Positions 17,017 through 30,943 of a stretch of DNA of 64,000 bases are shown piece after piece. The first letter of the stretch is position 1, and the number at the start of each line of letters is the position of its first letter. The stretch covers positions 1-64,000 of the forward strand of contig NZ_JAHYSG010000067.1 in assembly GCF_022095675.1 (NCBI RefSeq). Direction: 5' to 3'. A program made the position numbers and the translations under genes. Below the pieces are notes generated by a model, which had not been told where the DNA came from, searched no databases, and saw only the letters and a list, made by a program, of their open reading frames with translations. This DNA is from Dactylosporangium sp. AC04546 (lineage in GTDB: Bacteria > Actinomycetota > Actinomycetes > Mycobacteriales > Micromonosporaceae).

Positions 17017-17043
17017 GACATCCCACGTTCTACGTAGGATGTC
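17017..17043. promoter_or_regulatory. 27-bp palindromic operator at first sialidase start
   Basis: The left half GACATCCCACGT and the right half ACGTAGGATGTC are inverted copies separated by 3 bp. A -10-like TAGAAG (17012-17017) touches its left end. Sites of the same type occur at the GH42 and importer promoters. It overlaps the first possible ATG (17039) of the sialidase. I infer binding by one or both GntR proteins of the locus. Confidence 0.72.
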
Positions 17044-17047
17044 CTCC

Positions 17048-18910
17048 ATGCGCTATCGAAGGACATCTTTCGCGCTCCTGGCCGCCGCGCTGACCGCGGC
17101 ACTCATCCCGTCGCCGGCCGCCGCGGCGCTCATTCCCGGGTCGGACGCCGCCGCGCCGGCCCCGTTCGTCGACGAGCAGGTGCTGTACCAGCAGCGGACC
17201 GGCGGCTACGCCTGCTTCCGCATCCCGGCCGTGGTCCGCACCGTCAGCGGCACACTGCTCGCCTTCGCCGAGGGCCGCGTCGCCGACTGCGGCGACGACG
17301 GCGACATCGACCTCGTGGTGCGCCGCTCCACCGACGGCGGCCGCACCTGGGGCCCGGTGCAGGTGGTCGCCGAGGGCAACGGCGACACGATCGGCAACCC
17401 CGCGCCGGTCGTCGACCGAACCACCGGGCGCGTCGTGGTCGTCGGCACCCGCAACGGCCCAGCGCCGTGCCCGAACGGCTGCGACCGCGACCCGTACGTG
17501 CTCAGCAGCGACGACGACGGCGTCACCTGGACCGCGCCGCGGGAACTGGGCGATGCCAAGCGGCCGGAGTGGAACTTCTGGTACGCCACCGGCCCCATGC
17601 ACGGCATCCAGCTCGAACGCGGCCCGCACGCCGGGCGGCTCGTCGTCGGCGCGAACTTCGAGAGCTACGCCGGCGGCGAGAGTCCGCACGTCTATGGGAC
17701 GCACCTGCTGTACAGCGACGACGCCGGCCAGACGTGGCACATCGGCGCCGAGACGTCACGCGCCGACGGTACGATCATCGCGCAGGAGGTCACGGTCGTC
17801 GAGCGCACCGACGGCTCGATCTACGCGCTCGCCCGCGAGCGGGGCACCGACGAGGGCCACCGTGCCTTCGCCGTCAGCCGCGACGGCGGCGAGACGTTCG
17901 CGGCACCGTTCCGAGCCCTCCCGGCACTGGAGATGCCCGATGTCGAGGCATCGATGCTGCGCTATGACGGGAGCCGGATCCTGCTTTCCGCGCCGCTGCA
18001 CCCTGTGGCCCGCGAGGTGATGGCCGTCCGCTCGTCGTTCGACGAGGGCGGCTCCTGGCGGCAGCCCAAGGTCTTCAACTGGGGCCCCAGCGGCTACTCC
18101 GACCTGGTGCGGCTCGAGGGCGACGAGGCCGGCCTGCTGTACGAGAACGGGGTCGCCACGCCGTACGAGTCGATCCGCTGGGCCCGCTTCAACGAGGCGT
18201 ACCTGGCGACCCCGAACGGGACGCCGCCGAACATCCCGCCGCCCCCGGCGCCCGGCCCGGTGACCGCGGACCGCTCACCGGCGCACAACCCCGCCTACGT
18301 GCGCGGCGGCGCGGCCACCGTGCCCGGCCGGTTCGGCAGCGCGCTCGCGCTGGACCGGGTCGACGACTACGTGGAGGTACCGTTCGACCCGTCGATCGAC
18401 GCCGGCGCCGGGGACTTCACGATGGCGGCCTGGATCAACTACACGGCGACGACCGGCTCGCACGCGATCCTGTGGGCGTACCGCACCGGCTCCGGCACCA
18501 CGCCCCAGGTGTGGCTGCGCGCCGAGCCGGCGAGCAACCGCATCCGCGCGCTCATCATGGTCGATCGCTTCAACGTCACGGTGGCATCGACCAGCGCTTA
18601 CAACGACGGCCAGTGGCACTTCGTCGTGCTGCGACGCGCGGGCGGGACGCTCCGGCTCGCCGTCGACGGCGTGACGGCCGCCGAGGCCGCCGCGCCGCCC
18701 GGCTCGGTCACCGCCGGCAAGGAGTTCGGCGTCTACGGCATCCACGTCGGCCAGCGCGTCGACGGCGCCGACCGGTTCCTCGGCGCGATCGACGAGGTCC
18801 GCATGTACCGCCGGGCCCTGTCCGAGCAGGAGCTCACGCTGCTGCGCGAGCGCAACCTGCCGATCGGCGGCCGGCTCGGCCTCTGGCTGCCGTTCGAGGC
18901 TGTCGGGTAG
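17048..18910 (+). CDS. secreted GH33 sialidase with C-terminal LamG-type domain
   Basis: This exo-alpha-sialidase releases terminal sialic acid from glycoconjugates. It has a signal peptide (LLAAALTAALIPSPAAAA), the FRIP motif (CFRIPAVV) with the first Arg of the catalytic triad, and five Asp-box-like repeats (STDGGRTW, SSDDDGVTW, YSDDAGQTW, SRDGGETF, SFDEGGSW) of the six-bladed propeller. After a proline-rich linker (PPNIPPPPAPGP) comes a concanavalin-like LamG domain (about residues 430-615), probably carbohydrate binding. I favour ATG 17048; an in-frame ATG at 17039 lies inside the operator. No ribosome site is visible, so the mRNA may be leaderless. It heads the sialoside locus. Confidence 0.92.
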   Translation: MRYRRTSFALLAAALTAALIPSPAAAALIPGSDAAAPAPFVDEQVLYQQRTGGYACFRIPAVVRTVSGTLLAFAEGRVADCGDDGDIDLVVRRSTDGGRTWGPVQVVAEGNGDTIGNPAPVVDRTTGRVVVVGTRNGPAPCPNGCDRDPYVLSSDDDGVTWTAPRELGDAKRPEWNFWYATGPMHGIQLERGPHAGRLVVGANFESYAGGESPHVYGTHLLYSDDAGQTWHIGAETSRADGTIIAQEVTVVERTDGSIYALARERGTDEGHRAFAVSRDGGETFAAPFRALPALEMPDVEASMLRYDGSRILLSAPLHPVAREVMAVRSSFDEGGSWRQPKVFNWGPSGYSDLVRLEGDEAGLLYENGVATPYESIRWARFNEAYLATPNGTPPNIPPPPAPGPVTADRSPAHNPAYVRGGAATVPGRFGSALALDRVDDYVEVPFDPSIDAGAGDFTMAAWINYTATTGSHAILWAYRTGSGTTPQVWLRAEPASNRIRALIMVDRFNVTVASTSAYNDGQWHFVVLRRAGGTLRLAVDGVTAAEAAAPPGSVTAGKEFGVYGIHVGQRVDGADRFLGAIDEVRMYRRALSEQELTLLRERNLPIGGRLGLWLPFEAVG

Positions 18911-29010: not shown

Positions 29011-30017
29011 CCGCGCTCCTGGACCTCAGCGACGTGCACGTCGTGCACAAGGCCCGCACCGGCGGGGTGTTCCGCCGCGACCGGGTGTACGCGCTCACCG
29101 GCGCCGACCTCACCGTCGGCCCGGGGGAGACGGTCGGCATCGTCGGCGAGTCCGGCTGCGGCAAGTCGACCCTCGCCCGGGTCCTCGTCGGGCTCCAGCG
29201 GCCCACCGCCGGCACCGTGCGGTTCCGCGGCGACGACATCTGGGCCCTGCCCGCCGACCGGCGCCGCCGGATGATCGGCGCGAGCACCGGCATGGTGTTC
29301 CAGGACCCTTCGACCGCGCTCAACCGCCGCCTGCCGGTCCGGCAGATCCTGCGCGACCCGCTCGACGTGCACCGCCGCGGTACCGCCGGGGAACGCGACG
29401 AGCGCGTCCGCGAACTCCTGCGGCTGGTCGGCCTGCCGGCGAGCGCCGCCGACGTGCTGCCGGGCCAGCTGTCCGGCGGCCAGCGGCAGCGGGTCGCCAT
29501 CGCGCGGGCCCTCGCCCTGGACCCGGATCTGCTCATCGCCGACGAGCCGACCAGCGCGCTGGACGTGTCGGTCCGCGCACAGATCCTCAACCTGCTGCTC
29601 GACCTGCGGGAACGGCTGAACCTGGCGCTGGTGTTCGTGTCGCACGACATCCAGACCGTCCGGCGCATGAGCGACCGGGTCATCACGATGTACCTCGGGC
29701 GCATCGTCGAGCAGGCGCCGGCCACGGCGGTACCGGCGGGCGCCCGCCATCCGTACACCCGGGCGCTGTTCTCGGCCACGCCGGGCCTGCTCGACCCGAT
29801 CGACCCGATCCCGCTCGTCGGCCCGGTGCCGTCGGCGACCCGGCCGCCGAGCGGGTGCCCGTTCCGGACCCGCTGCTGGAAGGCGGACGAGACCTGCGCC
29901 GGCGCGATGCCGCCGGCCGAGCACGAGGCGGACGGGCACGCCTTCCGCTGCTACCACCCGGTGCGCGACGGAGCCACCGACCGTGAACTGATCAGCCAAG
30001 CACAGGAGCGCACATGA
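29007..30017 (+). CDS. ABC importer ATPase (DppF-like)
   Basis: The 336-residue ATPase has Walker A GESGCGKST, signature [15 protein letters not shown], Walker B LLIADEPTSALD, switch SHDIQTVRRMSD and the C-terminal cysteine motif (CPFRTRCWKADETC) found in the oligopeptide subgroup. It pairs with the ATPase half of the fused subunit to give a heterodimer. ATG 29007 overlaps the previous stop and its own stop overlaps the lyase start, so transport and catabolism are coupled. Confidence 0.93.
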   Translation: MTALLDLSDVHVVHKARTGGVFRRDRVYALTGADLTVGPGETVGIVGESGCGKSTLARVLVGLQRPTAGTVRFRGDDIWALPADRRRRMIGASTGMVFQDPSTALNRRLPVRQILRDPLDVHRRGTAGERDERVRELLRLVGLPASAADVLPGQLSGGQRQRVAIARALALDPDLLIADEPTSALDVSVRAQILNLLLDLRERLNLALVFVSHDIQTVRRMSDRVITMYLGRIVEQAPATAVPAGARHPYTRALFSATPGLLDPIDPIPLVGPVPSATRPPSGCPFRTRCWKADETCAGAMPPAEHEADGHAFRCYHPVRDGATDRELISQAQERT

Positions 30018-30943
30018 GCACCGCCACCGCACTGACCGGCGTCATCCCGCCGGTGTGCACCCCGCTGACGCCGGACTTCGCCGTCGACACCGCGTCGCTG
30101 ACCCGGCTGCTCGACCACCTGCTGGCCGGCGGGGTCGACGGGCTGTTCGTCCTCGGCTCGACGTCGGAGGTGGCGTACCTGCCCGACGCGCACCGCCGGG
30201 TCGTCCTCGACACCGTCGTCGGCCATGTCGCCGGGCAGGTGCCGGTGCTGGCCGGCGTCATCGACATGACGACCCTGCGGGTGCTCGACCACGTGCGGGC
30301 CGCGGTCGACGCGGGCGTCGACGGGCTCGTCGCGACCGCGCCGTTCTACGCCCGCACTCACCCGGTCGAGATCGCGCTGCACTTCCGGACCATCGCCGCC
30401 GCTGCCGGGCTCCCGCTGTACGCCTACGACCTGCCGGTCTCCGTGCACTCCAAGCTGCCCGGCGACCTGCTGCTCGACCTGGCCGGCGAGGGCGTCCTGG
30501 CCGGGCTGAAGGACTCCAGCGGCGACGAGGGCGGCTTCCGCAACGTGCTGCTCGGCCGGCGCGAGCGCGACGGGCTGGCCGGCTTCAGCGTGCTGACCGG
30601 CTCGGAGCTCACCGTCGACTCGGCGCTGTGGATGGGCGCCGACGGCGTGGTGCCCGGCCTCGGCAACGTCGACCCGCACGGGTACACGCGCCTCTACCGG
30701 GCCGCGGCCGCCGGTGACTGGGCCGCGGCCCGCACCGAGCAGGAGCGCCTGGTGCGGCTCTTCGACCTGGTCACCGTCGGCCGCGGCCGGATGGGCCACG
30801 GCTCCTCCGCGCTGGGCGCCTTCAAGGCCGCCCTCTACCTGCGTGGGGTCATCGCCCACCCGACGACCGCGGTGCCACAGATCCCGCTCGATGACGCGGA
30901 GATCGCCGCCGTCGGGAAGTATCTGGCAGCCGCAGGTCTTTGA
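30014..30943 (+). CDS. DapA/NanA-family lyase, predicted N-acetylneuraminate lyase
   Basis: The 309-residue TIM-barrel class I aldolase keeps the Schiff-base lysine (Lys166 in LAGLKDSSGD) and the catalytic tyrosine (Tyr138 in LYAYDLPV); their 28-residue spacing equals that of known NanA. The substrate-carboxylate loop is GSTSE (residues 49-53) instead of the usual GTTGE or GSTGE. The family includes dihydrodipicolinate synthase, sialic-acid lyase and sugar-acid aldolases; the sialidases and importer argue for cleavage of sialic acid to ManNAc and pyruvate. No NanE or NanK lies in the window, so later steps would be encoded elsewhere. Its 3' end overlaps the convergent acyltransferase gene by 95 bp. 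Confidence 0.85.
   Translation: MSTATALTGVIPPVCTPLTPDFAVDTASLTRLLDHLLAGGVDGLFVLGSTSEVAYLPDAHRRVVLDTVVGHVAGQVPVLAGVIDMTTLRVLDHVRAAVDAGVDGLVATAPFYARTHPVEIALHFRTIAAAAGLPLYAYDLPVSVHSKLPGDLLLDLAGEGVLAGLKDSSGDEGGFRNVLLGRRERDGLAGFSVLTGSELTVDSALWMGADGVVPGLGNVDPHGYTRLYRAAAAGDWAAARTEQERLVRLFDLVTVGRGRMGHGSSALGAFKAALYLRGVIAHPTTAVPQIPLDDAEIAAVGKYLAAAGL

What the first reader, a model, noticed from the sequence alone, without database searches (positions are those of the whole stretch)
17017..30943. Complete-looking sialoside capture and cleavage locus
Two secreted GH33 sialidases, a cytoplasmic GH42 beta-galactosidase, a dipeptide-type importer and a DapA/NanA-family lyase share operators and are largely coupled by ATGA overlaps. 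The four-part importer resembles the SatABCD sialic-acid system known from Haemophilus, seldom described in soil actinomycetes. NanE, NanK and NagA/B are not in the window, so later catabolism must be encoded elsewhere or the substrate differs from free sialic acid.
Basis: partly seen in the sequence, partly recalled or inferred. Interest (0 to 1): 0.8.

Follow-up and report, generated by a model that had tools for sequence, protein, structure and literature searches.

The report
NanE-less sialic-type sugar scavenging locus
A soil bacterium carries a gene set that looks like a sialic-acid eating system, but its transporter and sialidases belong to a separate branch without the usual follow-up enzymes, so it probably feeds on a related sugar (Kdn), perhaps taken from the cell walls of other soil bacteria.

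Summary
The anatomy is real: two GH33 enzymes, a GH42 beta-galactosidase, a dipeptide-type ABC importer (second permease fused to an ATPase) and a DapA-family lyase, plus two FCD-GntR regulators and shared operator-like sites. Importer and lyase are nearest to H. ducreyi SatA and C. glutamicum NAL. It is not rare: 80 related loci came from other actinomycetes, and this importer class dominates published actinobacterial nan clusters (PMC8754123).

Relatives split in two. In an even draw of 394 genomes, N-type (SatA-like) binding proteins had NanE within 11 kb in 12 of 12 genomes; W-type, the window's, in 0 of 8. Of 42 named genomes with a W-type locus, 22 lack NanE; 19 of those also lack the NanE-II family. 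All 47 aligned W-locus GH33s carry the Arg of the Aspergillus Kdn-specific sialidase; 0 of 6 N-locus GH33s do.

Best reading: a scavenging locus for Kdn or a similar non-N-acetylated nonulosonate, possibly from Kdn-galactose teichulosonic acids of actinomycete walls. Ordinary Neu5Ac use is less likely but not excluded; the lyase does not discriminate. No substrate was tested.

The parts
17017..17043 (.). operator-like 27-bp palindromic site before the first GH33 gene
   Evidence: only match in window at up to 3 mismatches, 0 in 100 shuffles
17048..18910 (+). GH33 (BNR_2) enzyme with C-terminal LamG domain, signal-peptide-like N-terminus; carries the Kdnase-type Arg and Trp
18938..19618 (-). 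FCD-GntR regulator 1, best NCBIfam NanR subfamily, below its cut-off
19713..19724 (+). operator half-site between regulator 1 and GH42
19755..21716 (+). GH42 beta-galactosidase, no signal peptide seen by eye
21713..22885 (+). second GH33 enzyme, signal-peptide-like N-terminus; Kdnase-type Arg and Trp
23554..24288 (-). FCD-GntR regulator 2, best NCBIfam NanR subfamily, below its cut-off
24317..24327 (+). operator half-site before regulator 2
24395..24425 (.). operator-like repeats upstream of the binding-protein gene, a motif shared with relatives
24448..26067 (+). W-type SatA-like substrate-binding protein (SBP_bac_5, TAT-like signal)
26129..27088 (+). ABC permease
27088..29010 (+). ABC permease fused to ATPase
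29007..30017 (+). ABC ATPase
30014..30943 (+). DHDPS/NAL-family lyase, nearest solved structure 5c54/5c55

Best explanation
A co-regulated scavenging locus for a non-N-acetylated nonulosonic acid, most likely Kdn. Two secreted GH33 enzymes release it, the W-type SatA-like importer takes it up, and the lyase splits it into pyruvate and mannose, so that NanK, NanE, NagA and NagB are not needed. The GH42 beta-galactosidase would deal with accompanying galactosides. Two FCD-GntR regulators act on shared operators. A plausible source is the Kdn-galactose teichulosonic acid of actinomycete walls. Shown: gene anatomy, conservation, W/N split, missing NanE, residue signatures. Inferred: substrate, products, natural source, regulation.
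For: NanE within 11 kb of the binding-protein gene in 0 of 8 W-type against 12 of 12 N-type genomes, from 394 examined. NanE missing from the whole genome in 22 of 42 named W-type genomes, 19 of these also without PF07221. ROK 0 of 76 W loci against 12 of 15 N; NanE 0 of 76 against 14 of 15. Arg at the Kdnase position in 47 of 47 W-locus GH33s against 0 of 6 N-locus ones, with a Trp column split the same way. Twelve columns of the binding protein split W from N plus SatA. GH42 in 14 of 76 W and 0 of 15 N loci. Teichulosonic acid consists of galactose and Kdn (PMC7831098, PMC11481543; passages).
Against: The lyase does not split: three N-type lyases (L089, L092, L099) nest among W lyases and only one column discriminates. 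20 of 42 W-type genomes do have a NanE elsewhere, this genome too. GH33S-like enzymes also occur in genomes without a W-type importer and were not aligned. GH33 genes were called in only 36 of 76 W loci. The role of the Arg in Kdn preference is recalled, not read. Counts are not corrected for kinship. No ligand test exists.
Confidence: 0.57

Rival explanations
1. Ordinary Neu5Ac/Neu5Gc uptake and catabolism. ManNAc is handled by a NanE and kinase encoded elsewhere, by an unrecognised epimerase, or is excreted while pyruvate is used.
For: Nearest characterised relatives are SatA and C. glutamicum NAL (PMC5380162). W-like lyases occur directly beside ROK and NanE in L089, L092 and L099. This genome has a NanE and a NagA.
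Against: 22 of 42 W-type genomes have no NanE, 19 of them no NanE-II family member. NanE is linked in 12 of 12 N-type but 0 of 8 W-type genomes. Two genomes carry a W locus and a separate lyase-ROK-NanE set (L114, L115). The one PF01182 protein of this genome is 6-phosphogluconolactonase, so no classical NagB was found.
Confidence: 0.25
2. The substrate is another ulosonic acid such as Kdo or a di-amino nonulosonate, released from plant or bacterial polymers.
For: The lyase family accepts several 2-keto-3-deoxy acids (one search shows KDG-type and DHDPS models in range). The W/N split shows only that the ligand differs from that of the N type.
Against: The GH33 Arg and Trp shared with the Aspergillus Kdnase point to Kdn. 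Kdo and di-amino sugars were not testable here.
Confidence: 0.13
3. A peptide importer and a DapA paralogue that merely sit next to sialidases.
For: Importer parts match dipeptide- and nickel-type NCBIfam models, below their cut-offs.
Against: Importer, regulator and lyase form one block: over 80 loci lyase 80, binding protein 74, regulator 72. SatA scores 362 bits against 123 for DppA.
Confidence: 0.05

Closest known systems
SatABCD sialic-acid importer of Haemophilus ducreyi (ST3 family)
   Same: Binding-protein family, with the nearest solved structures 5za4/5z99/5yyb; PMC11364026 names 5z99 as SatA with Neu5Ac; dipeptide-type permeases and ATPases. That SatC too is a fusion is recalled.
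   Different: The W-type binding protein is a separate clade; 12 columns are near-fixed differently from N-type plus SatA. An N-type protein (L089) scores 475 bits to SatA, the window's 362.
Corynebacterium glutamicum NAL (CgNal, recalled as 5c54/5c55)
   Same: Nearest solved lyase, 302 bits; shares the catalytic Tyr and Lys, Glu198 and Val212 (PMC5380162 passages).
   Different: GSxSE instead of GSSGE in 77 of 77 W lyases, at a motif position. In C. glutamicum the system serves Neu5Ac (PMC8754123, introduction).
Canonical actinobacterial nan clusters (PMC8754123), N-type here
   Same: GntR/FadR regulator, SBP_bac_5 importer, lyase, often a sialidase.
   Different: No nanK/nanE within reach; other GH33 residues; another binding-protein clade.
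Aspergillus fumigatus Kdnase (GH33, 2xcy)
   Same: Arg and Trp columns and four further conserved columns shared with the window GH33s.
   Different: Modest overall similarity (116 bits to the second GH33); fungal; one window enzyme carries LamG.

Membership tests
Canonical nan (Neu5Ac catabolic) cluster, as defined in PMC8754123 | nanA, nanK and nanE within 10 ORFs | tested here: not met
   No NanE or ROK in the locus; the only NanE of the genome is on contig C69. The assembly has 348 contigs and 11.54% flagged contamination.
Canonical nan (Neu5Ac catabolic) cluster, as defined in PMC8754123 | NAL-family lyase with SBP_bac_5 importer and FadR-type regulator | tested here: met
Bacteroidetes-type sialic acid route | NanE-II (GlcNAc 2-epimerase family) clustered with nanA | tested here: not met
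   None among the locus proteins scanned. PF07221 found in 9 of 50 related genomes; the window's own whole genome was not searched for it.
SatABCD importer (ST3) | binding protein of the SatA family | tested here: met
   362 bits to SatA structures, next best 123 bits
SatABCD importer (ST3) | binds and transports Neu5Ac | not testable with these tools
   needs binding or uptake assay; residue split W against N argues for another ligand
GH33 sialidase | BNR_2 fold with conserved catalytic columns (Arg, Asp, Glu, Arg) | tested here: met
Kdn-preferring GH33 (Kdnase) | Arg at the A. fumigatus Kdnase position (recalled as Arg171) | tested here: met
   both window enzymes and 45 of 45 from W-type neighbourhoods
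Kdn-preferring GH33 (Kdnase) | prefers Kdn over Neu5Ac glycosides | not testable with these tools
   enzyme assay needed

The most novel reading that the evidence does not exclude
A widespread actinomycete system that feeds on the walls of other actinomycetes: it strips Kdn (and, with GH42, galactose) from teichulosonic acids, imports Kdn and splits it to mannose and pyruvate. This would help explain why soil communities hold far more sialidase than NanE genes.
Probability: 0.38. Interest if true: 0.8.

Novelty: new variant of a known kind. Interest (0 to 1): 0.62.

Why it matters
Non-human environments carry about 21 times more sialidase than NanE genes on average (PMC10570557, passages), and what free-living actinomycetes do with 'sialic acid' systems is open. 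A sequence rule (binding-protein subtype, NanE linkage, GH33 Arg) would separate Neu5Ac systems from likely Kdn systems and turn dozens of loci into testable wall-glycopolymer scavengers. I saw no report of a dedicated bacterial locus of this kind in the listings of searches, which cover open-licence papers only.

Tried and rejected
Genome-wide regulon by operator half-site: 27 hits at up to one mismatch against 8 for the reversed control, but the 3 exact hits all lie in this locus, so no wider regulon is claimed. Lyase residues as a specificity marker: rejected, W and N lyases overlap. The SatA His as a marker: rejected, by eye it is missing from the L089 N-type protein too. Conserved neighbours in Streptomyces (two-component pair, MMPL) and Nonomuraea (catalase, HD, DUF4429) were scanned in one locus each and set aside as probable synteny. 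NeuB: none in this genome, 215 of 394 in the class sample, so own-wall recycling is not argued here. GH33S-like hits in genomes without a W-type importer were not aligned and are told as evidence against. Left out of the W/N test: four importer relatives at 30-32% identity, whose genomes all have NanE but not near them. Dropped as duplicates: L185 (= L076) and L191 (= L085), judged by equal contig lengths and identities. Six of the 80 loci (L035, L072, L090, L097, L103, L107) had no binding-protein call and are outside the W/N count. Two of the four own-genome frames were not GH33 frames and were dropped. No structure prediction or fold search was run.
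Full report
What is there. Left to right: GH33 with a LamG domain (17048-18910), an FCD-GntR regulator on the minus strand (18938-19618), a GH42 beta-galactosidase (19755-21716), a second GH33 (21713-22885), a second FCD-GntR (23554-24288, minus), then binding protein, permease, fused permease-ATPase, ATPase and a DHDPS-family lyase (24448-30943). ATGA overlaps are seen at 21713, 29007 and 30014, and a TGATG at 27086. The two regulators share a 205-base stretch at 72% identity; both have the NanR subfamily as best NCBIfam match, far below its cut-off.

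Operators. GACATCCCACGTTCTACGTAGGATGTC at 17017-17043 is the only match to its pattern at up to 3 mismatches, with none in 100 shuffles. Half-sites recur at 19713 and 24317. In the 13.02-Mb genome the 3 exact 12-base matches all lie in this locus. Upstream of the binding-protein gene in 76 W-type loci the related word ACGTGGGA occurs in 51; in one shuffled set the commonest 8-base word occurs in 17. Co-regulation is well supported; protein binding is inferred.

Families. Among solved structures the lyase is nearest to 5c54/5c55 (302 bits; next hit 131 bits), which I recall as C. glutamicum NAL. The paper on that enzyme (PMC5380162, passages including the abstract) says that it groups with DHDPS, lacks Asp191, Glu192 and Ser208 of other NALs, and has a low kcat/Km for Neu5Ac. 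The binding protein is nearest to 5za4/5z99/5yyb (362 bits); PMC11364026 (passages) names 5z99 as H. ducreyi SatA with Neu5Ac.

Not rare. A genome scan with the lyase gave 183 relatives, of which the best 80 loci were kept. Over these 80: lyase 80, last ATPase 77, fused permease-ATPase 75, binding protein 74, first permease 74, regulator 72. They come from Micromonospora, Nonomuraea, Actinomadura, Streptomyces, Kribbella and others. Li and Huang 2022 (PMC8754123; abstract, parts 1 and 2 of 7, section 10 and passages read) report nan clusters in about 13% of actinobacterial species, ABC importers in 88% of them, mostly SBP_bac_5, and a FadR regulator in nearly all of class Actinomycetia. They define a cluster by nanA, nanK and nanE within 10 ORFs and so would not count this one. 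PMC13188862 (passages) repeats that a satABCD-type system is essential for C. glutamicum growth on Neu5Ac.

Two types. Identity of the binding proteins to the window's falls into two groups, 66-83% (W) and 33-48% (N), with nothing between. In an even draw of 394 genomes of the class, 24 matched at E up to 1e-60: 8 W (this genome included), 12 N, and 4 at 30-32% that I set aside. A strong NanE match lay within 11 kb of the binding-protein gene in 12 of 12 N and 0 of 8 W genomes; only 2 of 8 W genomes have one at all, on other contigs. Fisher p is 8e-6 without correction for kinship; within one genus (g28) W is 0 of 6 and N 2 of 2. Over fetched, non-duplicate loci ROK was called in 0 of 76 W and 12 of 15 N, NanE in 0 of 76 and 14 of 15; the fifteenth N locus (L184) has NanE by HMM inside the fetched stretch.

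NanE in whole genomes. I searched 50 of the 80 genomes (the limit of the call). 24 of 50 have NanE. By type: 20 of 42 W, 3 of 3 N, and 1 of 5 with no binding-protein call. Of the 22 W genomes without NanE, 19 also lack the NanE-II family PF07221, which 9 of 50 have. In the N-type loci L089, L092 and L099 ROK and NanE directly follow the lyase. Elsewhere NanE mostly sits in other loci, often beside an MsmEFG-type importer or DUF4434, as in this genome (C69). Two genomes carry a W locus and a separate lyase-ROK-NanE set (L114 and L115). This genome has NagA; its one PF01182 protein is 6-phosphogluconolactonase, so no classical NagB was found; SIS-type deaminases were not searched. The assembly is in 348 contigs with 11.54% flagged contamination, so absence or presence of single genes outside the window is less certain.

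Sialidases. In an alignment of 60 sequences, the position of the A. fumigatus Kdnase Arg that reads Leu in entry 4m4v (recalled as Arg171) is Arg in 47 of 47 enzymes of W-type neighbourhoods: both here and 45 others, of which 44 are distinct and one (L090) has no binding-protein call. It is Leu, Ile or Gln in 6 of 6 from N loci, Leu in NedA and Ala in 7qy9; a Trp column splits W from N in the same way. Streptococcal NanA has Ser there by my own count. [quoted passage not shown] influenzae also acts in Kdn breakdown. The structural role of the Arg is recalled (Telford et al. 2011), not read. GH33S-like enzymes also occur in genomes without a W importer; I did not align those, so the Arg may mark a GH33 subfamily rather than the locus.

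Binding protein. The 77 W proteins form one clade (support 0.67); their sister is L173, which is NanE-linked (support 0.999). Twelve columns, one of them an insertion, are near-fixed one way in W and another way in N plus SatA; one lies two residues from the probable carboxylate-binding His of SatA (PMC11364026 numbers it 333). This fits a change of ligand on the W stem. The His itself is missing by eye from the window protein and from the L089 protein, so it does not mark the types.

Against my reading. The lyase shows no such split: three N-type lyases nest among the W lyases and only one column discriminates. 20 of 42 W genomes do have a NanE somewhere. GH33 genes were called in 36 of 76 W loci and GH42 in 14 of 76 (0 of 15 N). 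This genome lacks NeuB, so it does not seem to make Kdn itself by that route.

Source. Streptomyces walls carry teichulosonic acid of galactose and Kdn (PMC7831098 and PMC11481543, passages). Two GH33 enzymes, a beta-galactosidase, an importer and a lyase fit such a polymer; the link is inference. A search for 'teichulosonic' returned 10 papers; I saw passages of 5 and none of those passages describes its breakdown.

Organism. The NanE locus of this assembly matches one in Dactylosporangium sucinum at 90-96% protein identity (L135), so the window probably comes from a Dactylosporangium-like member of the Micromonosporaceae; inference, with the contamination caveat.

Verdict. Observation confirmed. 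Interpretation right in outline, not borne out on rarity and completeness, and probably wrong about Neu5Ac itself. The locus is a NanE-less variant of the known SatABCD/NanA kind, most likely for Kdn.

Noticed in passing
L021:1-6021 (own genome contig C69): HutC-type GntR, MsmEFG-type sugar ABC importer, DUF4434 protein, NanE and a ROK kinase cut by the contig end: a separate amino-sugar locus, with close relatives in Dactylosporangium sucinum (L135).
   Followed up: partly
L003 (own genome C108:5813-6736): A third GH33 of this genome also carries the Kdnase-type Arg and Trp; the one on C23 (L004) does not.
   Followed up: partly
window 16915-17010: 39-base inverted repeat, 82% complementary, between the preceding ABC genes and the first GH33 gene; may be a terminator.
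   Followed up: no
window 5377-5387: An exact operator half-site GACATCCTACG lies just before ORF 5390 and far from the locus; possible further regulon member or chance.
   Followed up: no
window 13249-16928: An ABC importer cluster resembling sulfate/thiosulfate transport by eye lies directly upstream of the locus.
   Followed up: no
L178 and L183: Two streptomycete-like N-type loci hold a second lyase-ROK-NanE set beside the first lyase; the second lyases branch nearer to the W lyases.
   Followed up: partly
L089, L092, L099: Dactylosporangium and Actinoplanes loci combine a W-like lyase with an N-type binding protein and ROK-NanE, suggesting exchange of modules.
   Followed up: partly
L053:13440-14384 and 25 other loci: A PfkB-family sugar kinase (scanned in L053 only) belongs to a cluster found in 26 of 80 loci, in 25 of them 1 to 6 genes downstream of the lyase on the opposite strand; partner or mere synteny.
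   Followed up: partly
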